From: Blattabacterium cuenoti
GTDB taxonomy: Bacteria; Bacteroidota; Bacteroidia; Flavobacteriales; Blattabacteriaceae
Assembly: GCF_014251635.1 (NCBI RefSeq)
Contig: NZ_CP059194.1
Coordinates: 124,001 to 188,000, forward strand
Direction: 5' to 3'
DNA: 64,000 bases
Both the position numbers and the translations under genes were made by a program. Below the pieces are notes generated by a model that was not told where the DNA came from, did no database searches, and worked only from the letters and a program-made list of their open reading frames with translations. Every line of letters begins with the position of its first letter. Position 1 is the first letter of the stretch. Below are positions 31,898 to 40,451 of this stretch, piece after piece.

Positions 31898-34363
31898 ATG
31901 AATGAAAGTGAAGGAGAGAAATTGATTTCTATTAATATTGAAGATGAAATGAAATCATCTTATATAGATTATTCTATGTCTGTTATTGTATCCAGAGCTC
32001 TTCCCGATGTTAGAGATGGATTAAAACCTGTACATAGAAGAGTTCTTTATGGAATGTATCAGTTAGGAATTCTTTCTAACAGTTCTTATAAAAAATCCGC
32101 TCGTATTGTGGGAGAAGTCTTAGGAAAATATCATCCACATGGAGATGTTTCCGTTTATGAGACGATGGTTCGTCTGACTCAAAAATGGACATTACGTTAT
32201 CCATTAATAGATGGACAGGGTAATTTTGGATCATTAGATGCAGATCCTCCGGCAGCCATGCGTTATACAGAAGTAAAAATGAAAAAAATATCTGAAGAAA
32301 TGTTGTTGGATATTAAAAAAGAAACTGTGGATATGCAATTAAATTTTGATGATTCTTTGGAAGAACCTACAGTTTTACCTACACGAATTCCAAACCTTTT
32401 GATAAATGGATCTTCTGGTATTGCAGTTGGAATGGCTACTAATATCCCTCCTCACAATTTAAAAGAAACTATAAATGCTATTTGCGCTTATATAGAAAAT
32501 AACGATATATCTATAGAACAGATCATGAAATATATTAAAGCTCCTGATTTTCCTACAGGTGGAATTATTTACGGATATGATGGAGTTAAAAATGCTTTTT
32601 TTACCGGAAAAGGACGTATTATTTTACGCGCAAAAGTACATTTCGAAGAAATTCATGGGAGACAATGTATTATTGTAGATGAGATCCCTTATCAAGTCAA
32701 CAAAGCTGAGATGATCGCTAGAACAGTGGAACTTATGAAAGAGGGTAGAATGGAAGGTATTTATCAAATTCGGGATGAATCAGATAGAAATGGATTACGT
32801 ATTGTCTACATTTTAAAACAAAATACAAATTCTAATATATTATTGAATAAATTGTTTCAATTAACTTCTTTACAAACTTATTTTAATATAAATAATATAG
32901 CTCTCGTTAATGGAAAACCTGTTCAATTAAATATAAAAAGTCTTATTCAACATTTTGTTGATCATAGACATAATGTTATTATTCGCCGTACTAAATACGA
33001 GCTCAATAAGTGTAAAAATCGTGTTCATATTTTGTTAGGTTTTTTGAAAATATTAGATGATTTAGATATCATGATTCAATTAATTCAAAACTCTAAAAAT
33101 CATTATGATGCCTGTGATAGATTGATTCAAAAATTTAAAATATCAAAAAATCAATCTCAATCCATTTTAGAGATGAAATTACAAAGCCTTACATCTTTAG
33201 AAATCAATAAACTTAAAAAAGAATATAACGAACTTATTAAAAAAATAGAATTTTTTAAAAATGTTTTGGAAAAGCATTCCACAAGAACTAAAATTATTCA
33301 AGAAGAACTTTTAAATATCAAAAAAAAATATCAAGATACACGTCGTACTCAAATTGATTATTCAGGAGATAAGGTGAACATAGAAGACCTAATTGAAAAC
33401 AAACAGGTCGTTCTTACTATTTCCCATGCCGGTTATATTAAAAGAACATCTTTATCAGAATACAAACGTCAAGGAAGAGGAGGGGTGGGAAACAGAGGGG
33501 CTACTGCTAGAGAATCGGACTTTTTCAAACATTTACTTGTAGCAACCAATCATCAATATCTACTTTTTTTTACAGAAAAAGGAAAATGTTTTTGGCTTAG
33601 AGTATATGAAATTCCAGAAGGGTCTAAAATTTCTAAAGGGAGAGCGATACAAAATATTATTCATCTTCAACAAGATGATAAAGTTAATGCTTATATCTTA
33701 ACGGAAGATCTTACTAATAAAAAGTATGTAAAAGATTATTATGTTATGATGATTACGCAAAAAGGTATTATTAAAAAAACATCTTTAGAAAATTATTCTC
33801 GTCCTAGAAAAGATGGGATCAATGCGATTGTTATTCGTAAAGGAGATTCTTTGTTGGAAGCGATTTTAACTAAGGGAGACAGCCATGTTTTTATTGCTGT
33901 AAAAAGTGGAAGAATTATTCGTTTTTCAGAGAATCAAGTTCGTTCTACTGGAAGAAATTCTTCCGGAGTCATAGGAATTAATACAAATAATCAAGATTTG
34001 GTTATTGGAATGATATGTGTAGATGTAGAAGGAAAAGAAAAAGGACATTTATTAGTTGTTTCTGAAAAAGGATTTGGAAAAAGATCCCATATAAAAGATT
34101 ATCGTATTACCAATCGTAGTGGAAAAGGAATTAAAACAATAAATATAACTCAAAAAACAGGGCGTTTAATTTCCATAAAATATGTCACGGATCAAGATGA
34201 TTTGATGATTATTAAAAAATCAGGGATTATTATACGTATTCCTGTATCAGATATAAGAGTTATGGGAAGAACAACTCAAGGGGTCAGATTAATCAATTTA
34301 AAAGAAAACGATTCCATAGCTGATGTGGCAAAAGTATACAAACCTATTATGGGTTTTCATTAA
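31898..34363 (+). CDS. gyrA: DNA gyrase subunit A
   Basis: GyrA cuts and rejoins DNA in the gyrase that introduces negative supercoils. The 821-aa protein has the winged-helix region with catalytic Tyr123 (AAMRYTE), the tower and coiled-coil, and a C-terminal beta-pinwheel starting with the GyrA box region [15 protein letters not shown]; that box separates it from ParC. In the quinolone-resistance region [12 protein letters not shown], Val84 replaces the usual Ser83 and Glu88 replaces Asp87 (E. coli numbering). Its last codons overlap the convergent prc stop by 17 bp. Confidence 0.96.
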
Positions 34364-36575
34364 AATCTCGTAATATATTGATACATTCTGCTATATAAAA
34401 ATCTTTCTTCAGATTTTTTTCCCATTTTTTTTGTTCTTCTGACTCTTTTTCTTTTAAAAAAATTTTGTAATGGGGAGGAAAAGCTTGTAATCCATATATA
34501 TTCAAATTTTTTTTTAATTTTTTAAAATTTTCATTTCTTTTTTTTATTTTTAAATTTTCATAAAAAAATTCTTCCCAGTTTAAAGAAAATTGTTTTTTAT
34601 TAAAATTAGAAAAATTTTTTTCTAATGATTGTATTTTTTTATAAATATTGATAAAATTCTTATTTTTTTTCAAACGTTTTATGCTTTTATTTTTAATATT
34701 TTCTAAATATAAATTATTATAATAAAAGTGAAGAGAAGGAATAGGATCTGTATAATCCCATTTTATAGGATTGATTTGATTTTTTTCTATAAATTTTAAA
34801 AATAGACTTTCCGTATTACTTGGAATGACTATATCGGAATTTACTCCTTTTAATTGAGTAGAATCTCCATTCACACGGTAAAATTTATTAATAGTAAATT
34901 TTAAAGCTCCTAATTTTTCATTATAGAAAAAAAATCGATTTAATGGATAAACTGTTTGTACAGTTCCTTTTCCATATGTTTGATAACTTCCAACAATAAT
35001 ACCTCTTTTATAATCGGCTATAGCCGCAGCGAGAATTTCGGAAGCAGAAGCAGATAACTCATTCACAAGAACGACAAGGGGTCCTGTCCACAGAATTTGA
35101 TTTTTATAACTTTTAAGTATCTTTTTTTTTCTGTTAGGCTTTCCTATTTGTACGATAGGAACTTTTCCTAAAAAAAAACTAGCAATTTCTATTACAGTAT
35201 CTAAAGATCCTCCTCCGTTATTTCTGATATCTATCAAAATTCCTTTTATATTTTCTTTTTTGAATTTTTGAATAATTTCTTTCATATCTTTAGTTGCATT
35301 TCTCCCATTTTGATTTTCAGGATTAAAATAAAATTCTGGGAGTCGGATCAAACCATACTTATCTTTATTTTTATCCAATATGACTACACTTTTTGCAAAA
35401 ATTTCTTTCTTTTCAATTATATCCCTAGTAAGAATCACTTCTTCTATAGATCCATTTTTCTTTTGAAGAGTTAGTTTCACTTTGATCCCTTTTTTTCCTC
35501 TTATTAAGCGAATCGAATTTTCTAATAACAGACCTACAATATTTTTAGATTCTGAGTTTATGTTTTTTGCTACTCGTATAATTTTATCTCCTACTTCTAT
35601 TTTTTTGTTTTTCCATGCAGGGCCACCATAAATGAGTTTAACAACGGTAGGATATCCTTTTTCATCTTCTTCTAATTCTATACCAATTCCTCCTGTTTGT
35701 CCAGATACATTAAAATCGAAAATTTCTTTTTCCTTTGGAGAAAAATAATTTGTATGAGGATCATATTGAGAAGTAATAGTATTAACATATATAGAAAACC
35801 AATCGGATTCTTTTTTTATTTTTAATTTTCTGAAATAATCTTGAATATATTCTTCTACTTTTTTTCTTGATTTTTTTTCGTTATTAACGAATGCATTTTT
35901 CCAAATCATTTTTTGGTTTGTGGAAGTCATCATTTTTTGGTTTGTGGAAGTCATCATTTTTTGGTTTGTGGAAGTCATCATTTTTTGGTTTGTGGAAGTC
36001 ATCATTTTTTGGTTTGTGGAAGTCATCATTTTTTGGTTTGTGGAAGTAATGATCTCTAATAAAGTTAAATATTTTAAATATTTTCTCCATTTTTCAATCC
36101 ATTCTTGTTTATTATTTGGATAAAAAGAATTTTGTTCTCTAAATATGTACATTTCTTTTTGATTGAAATCAAAAGATGTTTTTAATATTTTATAACATAT
36201 AGATTCCACTTCTTTTACTCTTAGTAAAAAACGTTTCATGATAATATTAAAAAAAGTAGGATCTCCATGAATCCAAAAATCGTCTATTTTTTCTTTATAT
36301 AAAGAAAGATCTTCCACATCTTTTTGTAGAAAAAAACGTTTTTGATTATCTAATTTTTCAAAAAATTTATGATATACTTTTTGTGAAAAATCATTATTTA
36401 TACAAATAGGATTTGTGTGTAAAAAGTAAAGTGTTTTATATATTGTTTTGAGTACTATACGGTATTTTTCCTGTTCTCCTTCTCCTAATGGGGAACAGAA
36501 ACTTAATGAAAAAATGATAAAAAAACCAATTATTATGTACTTAATATCATTCAGTTTTTTTATTTTGAAGTTCAC
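34347..36575 (-). CDS. prc: Carboxy-terminal processing protease (Prc/Tsp family, S41)
   Basis: A periplasmic S41 protease of 742 aa. A basic N-terminus and hydrophobic segment (about 12-27) end in SLSFC, a possible but atypical lipoprotein site. Order: an N-terminal helical domain (about 30-250), PDZ domain ([30 protein letters not shown], about 270-360), then the protease with [14 protein letters not shown] and the Ser/Lys dyad in [11 protein letters not shown] and [14 protein letters not shown]. Within the N-terminal domain lie six tandem 8-residue units (TSTNQKMM) encoded by a 24-bp minisatellite. It is longer than E. coli Prc (682 aa), partly through that insert. The 5' part is duplicated downstream of surE. 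Confidence 0.93.
35905..36048. repeat. 24-bp minisatellite, 6 tandem units, inside prc
   Basis: Six head-to-tail copies of a 24-bp unit (ATCATTTTTTGGTTTGTGGA plus AGTC on the plus strand), identical apart from the last base of the final unit. The period is a multiple of three, so the prc frame is kept and each unit adds eight residues. There are no spacers, which excludes a CRISPR array. Confidence 0.97.
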
Positions 36576-37927
36576 AATTATGTTATGTATTAAATATTAG
36601 TAAAATTATATATAAATGTAAATAGCTTTTTTATATAATATAAAATGATAAAAAAACCAATTATTTTAGTCACAAATGATGATGGCATTATAGCTCCAGG
36701 GATTAGAGCTCTTGTTCATTCTATGAATCTTTTAGGAGATGTGTATGTAGTGGCTCCAAATAAACCTCAGTCTGGAGTAGGACATGCAATAACAATGAAT
36801 ACAATATTATATTGTGATTCGGTAAAGATAGATAATGGAAATCAAAAAGAATGGGAATGTTCTGGAACTCCAGTCGATTGTGTTAAATTAGCAATTAATG
36901 ACCTTCTTCCAAGGAAACCTGATATTTGTGTATCAGGAATTAATCATGGATCAAACTCTTCTGTAAATATTATGTATTCTGGGACTGTATCTGCTGTGAT
37001 TGAGGCAAGTATAGAGGGAATTCCATCTGTAGGATTTTCTCTTTTAGATTTTGATTGGAATGCTGATTTTGAACCATCTAAAAAATATGTATCTCAAATT
37101 GTAAAAAAAATTCTTTATAATCCTATTCCGGAAAAAAAAATTACTTTGAATGTAAATATTCCTAAATTAAAAAAAGAAGAAATCAAAGGAATTAAAATAT
37201 GTAGACAAGCAGAGTCTAAATGGAGAGAAAGTTTTGATAAACGTTCCAATCCTAAAGGAAGAACTTATTATTGGTTAGTAGGAGATTTTGTTAATTTGGA
37301 TGAAAAGGCAGATACAGATGAATGGGCATTAAAGAATGGATATGTATCTATTGTTCCTATTCAATTTGATTTAACAAATTATACTATATTAAATCTTTTA
37401 AAAGATTGGAATTTTATTGTATTATTTGTTTTTTTCCGGATATATAGTTTGTTCTGAATTTGAATATTAAAACGTATTATAATTGTGTCATCTTTTTTAG
37501 AGGGATCTTTAAATCCCAAAAAAATCCAAGATTTTATTGGACAACATGATATATTGAACAACCTAAAAATTTTTATTCAAGCTGCTAAAAAAAGAAAAGA
37601 AGCTTTAGATCATATTTTATTTCATGGACCTCCAGGATTGGGAAAAACCACGCTAGCACATATTGTGGCTAATGAATTATGTGTAAATATTACTATTACT
37701 TCAGGATCTGTTTTAGATAAGCCTGGAGATTTAGCTGGGTTGTTGATTCATTTAAAAATAAACGATGTAATTTTTATTGATGAAATTCATCGTCTTTCTC
37801 CGATAGTTGAGGAATATTTGTATTCAGCTATGGAAAATTATAAAATAGATATTATCATCGATTCTGGATCGAATGCTAGATCACTACAAATCGATTTGTC
37901 TCCTTTCACTTTAATAGGAGCCACTAC
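35927..37927. repeat. Tandem duplication unit, left copy (2,001 bp)
   Basis: This segment recurs exactly as 37928-39928. It contains five of the six minisatellite units, the 5' part of prc, all of surE and the first 443 bp of ruvB. The join at 37927/37928 puts ruvB sequence (CCACTAC) directly onto minisatellite sequence (TCATCATTT). No microhomology is evident: the bases flanking the two ends differ (G vs C before the unit end, A vs T after). Confidence 0.97.
36645..37457 (+). CDS. surE: 5'/3'-nucleotidase SurE, copy 1
   Basis: SurE dephosphorylates nucleoside 5'- and 3'-monophosphates. The 270-aa protein has the metal-binding ILVTNDDGI (the two Asp residues), APNKPQSGVGHAITM, CSGTPVDCVKLAI, and VSGINHGSNSSVNIMYSGTVSAVIEA. 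The C-terminal end (FIVLFVFFRIYSLF) is unusually hydrophobic for SurE. The copy at 38646 is identical over its full length. It is divergent from prc (69 bp) and 27 bp upstream of the truncated ruvB copy. Confidence 0.95.
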   Translation: MIKKPIILVTNDDGIIAPGIRALVHSMNLLGDVYVVAPNKPQSGVGHAITMNTILYCDSVKIDNGNQKEWECSGTPVDCVKLAINDLLPRKPDICVSGINHGSNSSVNIMYSGTVSAVIEASIEGIPSVGFSLLDFDWNADFEPSKKYVSQIVKKILYNPIPEKKITLNVNIPKLKKEEIKGIKICRQAESKWRESFDKRSNPKGRTYYWLVGDFVNLDEKADTDEWALKNGYVSIVPIQFDLTNYTILNLLKDWNFIVLFVFFRIYSLF

Positions 37928-38060
37928 TCATCATTTTTTGGTTTGTGGAAGTCATCATTTTTTGGTTTGTGGAAGTCATCATTTTTTGGTTTGTGGAAGT
38001 CATCATTTTTTGGTTTGTGGAAGTCATCATTTTTTGGTTTGTGGAAGTAATGATCTCTAA
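37485..38060 (+). pseudogene. ruvB: Truncated chimeric ruvB (N-terminal part plus minisatellite tail)
   Basis: Starting at GTG 37485, the first 147 residues are identical to RuvB (Walker [14 protein letters not shown], Walker [11 protein letters not shown]). At 37927 the frame runs into the prc minisatellite read on its other strand, adding five HHFLVCGS units and NDL before a stop: 191 residues in total. The sensor/arginine-finger region and the winged-helix DNA-binding domain are lost, so it cannot be a working RuvB helicase. The full gene lies at 39486. If translated, it could interfere with RuvB hexamers; that is speculation. Confidence 0.92.
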
Positions 38061-38576
38061 TAAAGTTAAATATTTTAAATATTTTCTCCATTTTTCAATC
38101 CATTCTTGTTTATTATTTGGATAAAAAGAATTTTGTTCTCTAAATATGTACATTTCTTTTTGATTGAAATCAAAAGATGTTTTTAATATTTTATAACATA
38201 TAGATTCCACTTCTTTTACTCTTAGTAAAAAACGTTTCATGATAATATTAAAAAAAGTAGGATCTCCATGAATCCAAAAATCGTCTATTTTTTCTTTATA
38301 TAAAGAAAGATCTTCCACATCTTTTTGTAGAAAAAAACGTTTTTGATTATCTAATTTTTCAAAAAATTTATGATATACTTTTTGTGAAAAATCATTATTT
38401 ATACAAATAGGATTTGTGTGTAAAAAGTAAAGTGTTTTATATATTGTTTTGAGTACTATACGGTATTTTTCCTGTTCTCCTTCTCCTAATGGGGAACAGA
38501 AACTTAATGAAAAAATGATAAAAAAACCAATTATTATGTACTTAATATCATTCAGTTTTTTTATTTTGAAGTTCAC
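37911..38576 (-). pseudogene. prc: Truncated prc copy (N-terminal 213 residues)
   Basis: The start (38576) and first part are identical to prc, including the signal segment and part of the N-terminal helical domain. After five TSTNQKMM units the frame crosses the duplication join into antisense ruvB and stops after SSGSY (221 aa). PDZ and protease domains are absent, so it has no catalytic activity. The upstream region is also duplicated, so it may still be transcribed. The intact gene is at 34347-36575. Confidence 0.9.
37930..38049. repeat. 24-bp minisatellite, 5 units, at the duplication join
   Basis: Five copies of the same 24-bp unit as at 35905-36048. They begin two bases after the end of duplicated ruvB sequence. 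The left end of the duplication therefore falls between units 1 and 2 of the original array. Confidence 0.96.
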
Positions 38577-38645
38577 AATTATGTTATGTATTAAATATTA
38601 GTAAAATTATATATAAATGTAAATAGCTTTTTTATATAATATAAA

Positions 38646-39458
38646 ATGATAAAAAAACCAATTATTTTAGTCACAAATGATGATGGCATTATAGCTCCAG
38701 GGATTAGAGCTCTTGTTCATTCTATGAATCTTTTAGGAGATGTGTATGTAGTGGCTCCAAATAAACCTCAGTCTGGAGTAGGACATGCAATAACAATGAA
38801 TACAATATTATATTGTGATTCGGTAAAGATAGATAATGGAAATCAAAAAGAATGGGAATGTTCTGGAACTCCAGTCGATTGTGTTAAATTAGCAATTAAT
38901 GACCTTCTTCCAAGGAAACCTGATATTTGTGTATCAGGAATTAATCATGGATCAAACTCTTCTGTAAATATTATGTATTCTGGGACTGTATCTGCTGTGA
39001 TTGAGGCAAGTATAGAGGGAATTCCATCTGTAGGATTTTCTCTTTTAGATTTTGATTGGAATGCTGATTTTGAACCATCTAAAAAATATGTATCTCAAAT
39101 TGTAAAAAAAATTCTTTATAATCCTATTCCGGAAAAAAAAATTACTTTGAATGTAAATATTCCTAAATTAAAAAAAGAAGAAATCAAAGGAATTAAAATA
39201 TGTAGACAAGCAGAGTCTAAATGGAGAGAAAGTTTTGATAAACGTTCCAATCCTAAAGGAAGAACTTATTATTGGTTAGTAGGAGATTTTGTTAATTTGG
39301 ATGAAAAGGCAGATACAGATGAATGGGCATTAAAGAATGGATATGTATCTATTGTTCCTATTCAATTTGATTTAACAAATTATACTATATTAAATCTTTT
39401 AAAAGATTGGAATTTTATTGTATTATTTGTTTTTTTCCGGATATATAGTTTGTTCTGA
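38646..39458 (+). CDS. surE: 5'/3'-nucleotidase SurE, copy 2
   Basis: Identical in protein sequence to the 270-aa copy at 36645 and embedded in the right copy of the tandem duplication with the same upstream region. All SurE metal- and phosphate-binding motifs are intact (TNDDGI, SGINHGSNSSVN). It is 27 bp upstream of the intact ruvB, so this copy sits in what is likely the ancestral surE-ruvB arrangement. Both copies should be functional unless the assembly is wrong. Confidence 0.93.
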   Translation: MIKKPIILVTNDDGIIAPGIRALVHSMNLLGDVYVVAPNKPQSGVGHAITMNTILYCDSVKIDNGNQKEWECSGTPVDCVKLAINDLLPRKPDICVSGINHGSNSSVNIMYSGTVSAVIEASIEGIPSVGFSLLDFDWNADFEPSKKYVSQIVKKILYNPIPEKKITLNVNIPKLKKEEIKGIKICRQAESKWRESFDKRSNPKGRTYYWLVGDFVNLDEKADTDEWALKNGYVSIVPIQFDLTNYTILNLLKDWNFIVLFVFFRIYSLF

Positions 39459-39485
39459 ATTTGAATATTAAAACGTATTATAATT

Positions 39486-40451
39486 GTGTCATCTTTTTTA
39501 GAGGGATCTTTAAATCCCAAAAAAATCCAAGATTTTATTGGACAACATGATATATTGAACAACCTAAAAATTTTTATTCAAGCTGCTAAAAAAAGAAAAG
39601 AAGCTTTAGATCATATTTTATTTCATGGACCTCCAGGATTGGGAAAAACCACGCTAGCACATATTGTGGCTAATGAATTATGTGTAAATATTACTATTAC
39701 TTCAGGATCTGTTTTAGATAAGCCTGGAGATTTAGCTGGGTTGTTGATTCATTTAAAAATAAACGATGTAATTTTTATTGATGAAATTCATCGTCTTTCT
39801 CCGATAGTTGAGGAATATTTGTATTCAGCTATGGAAAATTATAAAATAGATATTATCATCGATTCTGGATCGAATGCTAGATCACTACAAATCGATTTGT
39901 CTCCTTTCACTTTAATAGGAGCCACTACAAGATCAGGTTTGCTTACGGCACCTATGCGTTCTAGATTTGGAATTAATTTTCGTCTTAGTTATTATGAAAA
40001 AGAATTATTAAACGATATTGTAAATCGTAGTGCAAAATTGCTAAATATTCCAATAACGGAAGAAGCCTCTCATGAAATAGCGAATAGAAGTCGCGGAACT
40101 CCACGTATAGCCAATGCTTTATTACGTAGAATTCGTGATTTTGCGGAAGTAAAAGGAAATGGAACCATTGATATTAACATATGTAATTTAGGATTACAAG
40201 CCCTTAATGTAGACAAACATGGATTAGATGAAATGGATAATAGAATTCTTTCATATATCATAGATTATTTTAAAGGAGGACCTGTTGGGATCAATACTAT
40301 AGCAACAGCTGTTAGCGAAAATTCAGATACCATAGAAGAAGTTTATGAACCTTTTCTAATTCAGGAAGGATACTTAATTAGAACACCTAGAGGAAGAAAG
40401 GTTACAAAATTAGCTTATCAACATATAAAAAAAAATTTTAAAAAAAAATAG
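39486..40451 (+). CDS. ruvB: Holliday junction branch migration helicase RuvB
   Basis: RuvB is the AAA+ motor that, with RuvA, drives branch migration. The 321-aa protein begins at GTG 39486. It shows the P-loop [13 protein letters not shown], Walker [31 protein letters not shown] (sensor/arginine finger) and the C-terminal winged helix (PVGINTIATAVSENSDTIEEVYEPFLIQEGYLIRTPRGR). It lacks some N-terminal residues of the E. coli protein but keeps all catalytic elements. The first 443 bp are also present as the truncated copy at 37485. Confidence 0.96.
   Translation: MSSFLEGSLNPKKIQDFIGQHDILNNLKIFIQAAKKRKEALDHILFHGPPGLGKTTLAHIVANELCVNITITSGSVLDKPGDLAGLLIHLKINDVIFIDEIHRLSPIVEEYLYSAMENYKIDIIIDSGSNARSLQIDLSPFTLIGATTRSGLLTAPMRSRFGINFRLSYYEKELLNDIVNRSAKLLNIPITEEASHEIANRSRGTPRIANALLRRIRDFAEVKGNGTIDINICNLGLQALNVDKHGLDEMDNRILSYIIDYFKGGPVGINTIATAVSENSDTIEEVYEPFLIQEGYLIRTPRGRKVTKLAYQHIKKNFKKK

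What the first reader, a model, noticed from the sequence alone, without database searches (positions are those of the whole stretch)
35927..39928. Perfect 2,001-bp tandem duplication spanning prc 5', surE and ruvB 5'
35927-37927 and 37928-39928 read as exact copies at constant offset. It leaves one intact prc, one intact ruvB and two intact surE genes, plus truncated prc and ruvB. The join has no microhomology. Large identical duplications are unexpected in reduced endosymbiont genomes, which usually lack repeats. It may be very recent, selected for surE dosage, or an assembly artefact.
Basis: seen in the sequence. Interest (0 to 1): 0.8.

Follow-up and report, generated by a model that had tools for sequence, protein, structure and literature searches.

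The report
Repeat probably created by genome assembly
A perfect 2,001-base head-to-tail copy in the genome of a cockroach endosymbiont (Blattabacterium) is really in the record, but it most likely comes from closing the circular assembly at a hard-to-assemble mini-repeat, not from a real gene duplication.

Summary
In detail: 35927-37927 and 37928-39928 are identical over exactly 2,001 bases, with a blunt join. The genome is a single 635,117-bp Blattabacterium contig in which no other direct repeat outside this locus exceeds 72 bp. No relative carries the duplication.

The best explanation is an assembly-closure artefact. The left end lies inside a 6 x 24-bp minisatellite in prc. In a single-copy model of this genome, that array is the only branching point in the whole chromosome for k = 77-119. 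A short-read assembly would therefore give one linear contig that starts and ends there. Joining its ends with 2,001 untrimmed (or appended) bases gives this sequence: zero mismatches, blunt join, near-round length, one edge in the array. In a sister assembly both remaining N gaps lie at minisatellites.

Selection for surE dosage is unlikely. surE is absent from 8 of 49 Blattabacterium genomes and single-copy in the other 40 relatives. RecA is present, so a real tandem repeat should be unstable. A genuine, very recent duplication cannot be excluded without reads (about 20%). The prc minisatellite itself looks real and varies in copy number among relatives.

The parts
35927..37927 (.). Copy 1 of the 2,001-bp unit (array part, prc 5' part, surE, ruvB 5' part)
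   Evidence: identical to 37928-39928, 0 mismatches
37928..39928 (.). Copy 2 of the 2,001-bp unit; inferred to be where the original linear contig began
   Evidence: identical to copy 1; start lies in the minisatellite, the only graph-branching locus of a single-copy model at k=77-119
37927..37928 (.). Blunt join, ruvB next to minisatellite; 0 bp microhomology
35905..36047 (.). 24-bp x 6 perfect minisatellite inside prc (encodes TSTNQKMM repeats), left array
   Evidence: TRF 100% match; copy number varies in relatives
37928..38048 (.). Same minisatellite, 5 copies (121 bp), at the join
34347..36575 (-). Intact prc (tail-specific protease, 742 aa)
   Evidence: Pfam TSP_NTD, PDZ, Peptidase_S41, DUF3340
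36645..37457 (+). surE copy 1 (270 aa)
   Evidence: Pfam SurE 219 bits
37485..38060 (+). Truncated ruvB' running antisense into the array (HHFLVCGS repeats)
   Evidence: RuvB_N without the lid and C-terminal domains
37911..38576 (-). Truncated prc' ending across the join (...MMSSGSY)
   Evidence: TSP_NTD only; translation
38646..39458 (+). surE copy 2, identical to copy 1
39486..40451 (+). Intact ruvB (321 aa)
   Evidence: RuvB_N, AAA_lid_4, RuvB_C

Best explanation
Assembly-closure artefact. The real chromosome most likely has one prc-surE-ruvB locus with a 24-bp minisatellite in prc. A short-read assembly stopped only at that minisatellite, giving one linear contig for the whole chromosome. 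When the ends were joined, about 2 kb of sequence present at both ends (a terminal overlap, a finishing read or amplicon, or a wrap-around of about 2,000 bases added to check circularity) was not trimmed. The record was later rotated to its standard start, which moved the untrimmed seam to the middle of the record, where it reads as a perfect tandem duplication. Shown here: identity, blunt join, uniqueness, position of the edge in the array, and that the array is the sole graph-breaking point. Inferred: the short-read assembly, the trimming error and the rotation.
For: (1) In silico, after removing one unit, the circular 633,116-bp genome has a single branching cluster for k=77, 91, 95, 99, 111 and 119, at this array (159905 on), and none at k=121/127. 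One linear contig starting and ending here is therefore the expected short-read product. (2) The duplication starts 22 bp inside that array; a random breakpoint would fall in it with p about 2e-4. (3) In the sister assembly G008, 2 of 2 N gaps lie inside or between minisatellites that make up about 0.3% of that genome, so assemblies of this set do break at such arrays. G022 also holds an N gap, at a homopolymer stretch. (4) 0 differences in 2001 bp and a join with 0 bp homology. (5) The length is 2,000 + 1. (6) No other genome examined has it: the relatives are single-copy for the region, and three full relatives have no comparable duplication. (7) The four records I hold in full start at the same homologous ATG, so they have been rotated. 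Trycycler's authors note that after such normalisation duplicated bases at contig ends appear in mid-sequence, and report start/end overlaps up to 80 kbp (PMC8442456). HGAP contigs often carry duplicated overlapping ends that must be trimmed (PMC5513972). (8) Published Blattabacterium short-read work reached one near-complete linear contig from 100-nt reads (632,334 of 632,370 bp), then proofread repetitive regions by Sanger sequencing (PMC4567559).
Against: No reads, depth or assembly log could be examined. The right edge, in ruvB, is not at a repeat, so the 2,001-bp extension has to be explained by overlap, a finishing read or wrap-around. No second example of the error was found in the three other full genomes. 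That G000 was made from short reads by this kind of pipeline is inferred, and its record has no N.
Confidence: 0.75

Rival explanations
1. Genuine, very recent tandem duplication. A replication or repair accident at the prc minisatellite (fork stall or break) was joined end to end with ruvB 2 kb away; the repeat has risen to majority in the symbionts of the sampled insect by drift.
For: The sequence shows it and both interrupted genes keep an intact copy. The edge lies in a repeat array, a plausible breakage site. The array is truly variable among relatives: 2.3 copies in G022, 3 octapeptide units in G003. About half of random breakpoint pairs have no microhomology, so a blunt join is not excluded.
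Against: It would have to be younger than about 2% of the G000-G022 divergence. It is the only such repeat in the genome and absent in the three full relatives. RecA is present, so direct repeats of 2 kb should be lost quickly (established knowledge). The length 2,001 and the coincidence with the sole assembly-breaking site need two chance events.
Confidence: 0.2
2. Genuine duplication kept by selection for a second copy of surE (5'/3'-nucleotidase).
For: surE is the only gene wholly inside the unit and both copies are intact with their upstream region.
Against: surE is missing from 8 of 49 Blattabacterium genomes and single-copy in the 40 other relatives. In G002 the prc-ruvB neighbourhood remains while surE is gone. 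In any tandem duplication of this extent the enclosed gene is automatically intact.
Confidence: 0.03
3. Mixed population: most symbiont chromosomes are single-copy and a minority carry the duplication, and the assembler took the minority path.
For: Tandem duplications are common transient states in bacterial populations (established knowledge).
Against: A minority path is rarely kept in a consensus; nothing here tests it.
Confidence: 0.02

Closest known systems
Untrimmed start/end overlap of a circular contig (circularisation error)
   Same: Perfect identity, blunt seam, single occurrence, appears mid-sequence after rotation (described in PMC8442456 and PMC5513972)
   Different: The overlap here is 2,001 bp and one edge sits in a minisatellite rather than at an arbitrary read end
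Spontaneous bacterial tandem duplication by illegitimate recombination
   Same: Head-to-tail copies; one intact copy of each interrupted gene
   Different: Usually longer, often with repeats or short homology at the join (own knowledge); none here
Coding minisatellite (VNTR) in an endosymbiont gene
   Same: 24-bp in-frame units in prc with copy number varying between relatives
   Different: Explains the left edge only, not the 2-kb copy

Membership tests
Circularisation/assembly-closure artefact | Copies identical with no divergence | tested here: met
   0/2001 mismatches
Circularisation/assembly-closure artefact | Seam at a place where the assembly would break | tested here: met
   array is the only branching locus at k=77-119 in the single-copy model
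Circularisation/assembly-closure artefact | Seam not explained by sequence homology between the two ends | tested here: met
   0 bp microhomology
Circularisation/assembly-closure artefact | No reads across the seam; depth over the unit equal to flanks | not testable with these tools
   no read data available
Genuine recent tandem duplication | Head-to-tail copies in the record | tested here: met
Genuine recent tandem duplication | Independent support from reads or from a close strain with the same junction | tested here: inconclusive
   no relative carries it; no strain of the same species available; reads not available
Selected surE amplification | surE retained and important across the genus | tested here: not met
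   absent in 8 of 49 genomes, single-copy in 40 relatives

The most novel reading that the evidence does not exclude
A real, very recent 2-kb tandem duplication seeded at a coding minisatellite in an otherwise repeat-free obligate endosymbiont, showing that such genomes can still make gene duplications through minisatellite breakage.
Probability: 0.2. Interest if true: 0.4.

Novelty: not a real feature. Interest (0 to 1): 0.15.

Why it matters
If it is an artefact, this record overstates the genome by 2,001 bp, one surE gene and two gene fragments, and should not be counted as an exception to the rule that reduced endosymbiont genomes lack duplications. The check used here (does the seam lie at the only place where a short-read graph would break?) can be applied to other lone perfect tandem duplications in 'complete' genomes. 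If it is real, it would be a rare fresh duplication in a genome that otherwise only loses genes.

Tried and rejected
Selection for surE dosage: rejected on surE losses in the genus. Shared inherited duplication: rejected, since the relatives are single-copy for the region. Homologous recombination between flanking repeats: rejected, as there is no homology between the two breakpoints. Unrotated record boundary: the record ends lie elsewhere and share no terminal overlap. Reading the assembly methods of the source project: the likely papers are not held, and other Blattabacterium papers do not name a 635,117-bp genome. A promoter/terminator scan of the region added nothing. A match between array length at the join (121 bp) and a common assembler word size was considered and set aside as numerology.

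Full report
OBSERVATION. The window is bases 124001-188000 of a single 635,117-bp contig. Its 36 same-genus relatives in the first search include chromosomes whose lengths equal published Blattabacterium genomes (622,952, 587,248, 605,745 and 632,490 bp; against the table in PMC6039017), and a named relative is Blattabacterium cuenoti ESCALves. The genome is therefore Blattabacterium, the cockroach fat-body endosymbiont. Copies 35927-37927 and 37928-39928 are identical over 2001 bases and the identity stops exactly there on both sides. Nothing else in the chromosome is comparable: outside this locus the longest direct repeat is 72 bp and the longest inverted repeat 51 bp.

ANATOMY. The unit holds part of a 24-bp minisatellite, the 5' part of prc (minus strand), all of surE and the 5' part of ruvB. 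Intact prc uses copy 1 and intact ruvB uses copy 2. The fragments at the join are a RuvB N-terminal domain that runs antisense into the array, and a Prc N-terminal domain that ends just past the join. A tandem duplication always leaves one whole copy of the genes cut at its two ends, so this is not a sign of selection. The join has no microhomology, but 48.5% of random breakpoint pairs have none either.

RELATIVES. In the relatives where the region aligns, the prc-surE-ruvB region is single. SurE was counted in 49 genomes of the genus: 2 copies here, 1 in 40, 0 in 8. In G002 the prc 5' end and ruvB are still neighbours while surE is gone. G022 is collinear with G000 at about 93% identity and differs here by lacking the copy. 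With no difference in 2001 bp, a real duplication would have to be younger than about 2% of that divergence.

THE MINISATELLITE. The left edge of the duplication is 22 bp inside a perfect 6 x 24-bp array in prc, encoding TSTNQKMM repeats, which is the longest perfect array of the genome. The same place in Prc has 2 units in G022 and 3 in G003, and a degenerate or single unit elsewhere. The exact array sequence is not found in the other genomes of the genus. The array is therefore a natural, fast-changing element, and also an assembly obstacle.

WHY AN ARTEFACT IS MOST LIKELY. I built the word graph of the chromosome with one unit removed. For k = 77, 91, 95, 99, 111 and 119 the only branching locus in the whole circle is this array; at k = 55-71 one other array joins it; at 121 and above there is none. 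A short-read assembly of a single-copy genome would thus come out as one linear contig with both ends at this array, which is exactly where the repeated segment begins. In sister genome G008 both N gaps fall in or between minisatellites, so such arrays do stop these assemblies. A published Blattabacterium pipeline obtained a single contig a few bases short of the circle from 100-nt reads and then treated repetitive regions by Sanger sequencing (PMC4567559). Joining the ends of such a contig with about 2 kb of shared or appended sequence left in place gives all observed features: perfect identity, blunt seam, one edge in the array, the other at an arbitrary base, a length of 2,000 + 1, and a unique event. 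Untrimmed ends are a described error class, and rotation moves them to mid-sequence (PMC8442456, PMC5513972). The four records I could read in full all start at the same homologous ATG, so they were rotated. That these records come from one project and from short reads is my inference.

WHAT REMAINS OPEN. No reads could be examined. A genuine break at the minisatellite followed by end-joining would leave the same sequence. Against it stand the total absence of divergence, the lack of any comparable repeat in four full genomes, an intact RecA, which should make a 2-kb direct repeat unstable, and the coincidence with the sole assembly-breaking site. I put the artefact at 0.75 and a real duplication of any kind at about 0.25, with selection for surE at 0.03.

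Noticed in passing
35905-36047: In-frame 24-bp coding minisatellite in the N-terminal domain of Prc (TSTNQKMM x6), with a different copy number or unit sequence in relatives: 2 units in G022, 3 units of TSKNQKKI in G003. It suggests repeated expansion at the same codons.
   Followed up: partly
prc-ruvB interval in relatives G002, G015, G019, G020, G025, G033, G036, G063: surE not detected in 8 of 49 Blattabacterium genomes; in G002 prc and ruvB remain neighbours. Apparent repeated gene loss.
   Followed up: partly
L221-L252 (G008), genome positions 127389, 251753, 489606, 523873, 524078: G008 is much richer in long coding-type minisatellites (24-84 bp units, up to 381 bp perfect) than G000, G022 or G030, and both of its N gaps sit at them.
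   Followed up: partly
37485-38060: The array read on the other strand is also open (HHFLVCGS repeats), so the truncated ruvB' gains a repetitive tail; probably meaningless.
   Followed up: no
G030 357501-362500 (L205-L206): A run of exactly 5,000 N; either a withheld stretch or a scaffold gap of fixed size.
   Followed up: no
G000 563462-563575: A 42-bp x 2.7 perfect array, the only other repeat that breaks a short-read graph of this genome at k = 55-71.
   Followed up: no
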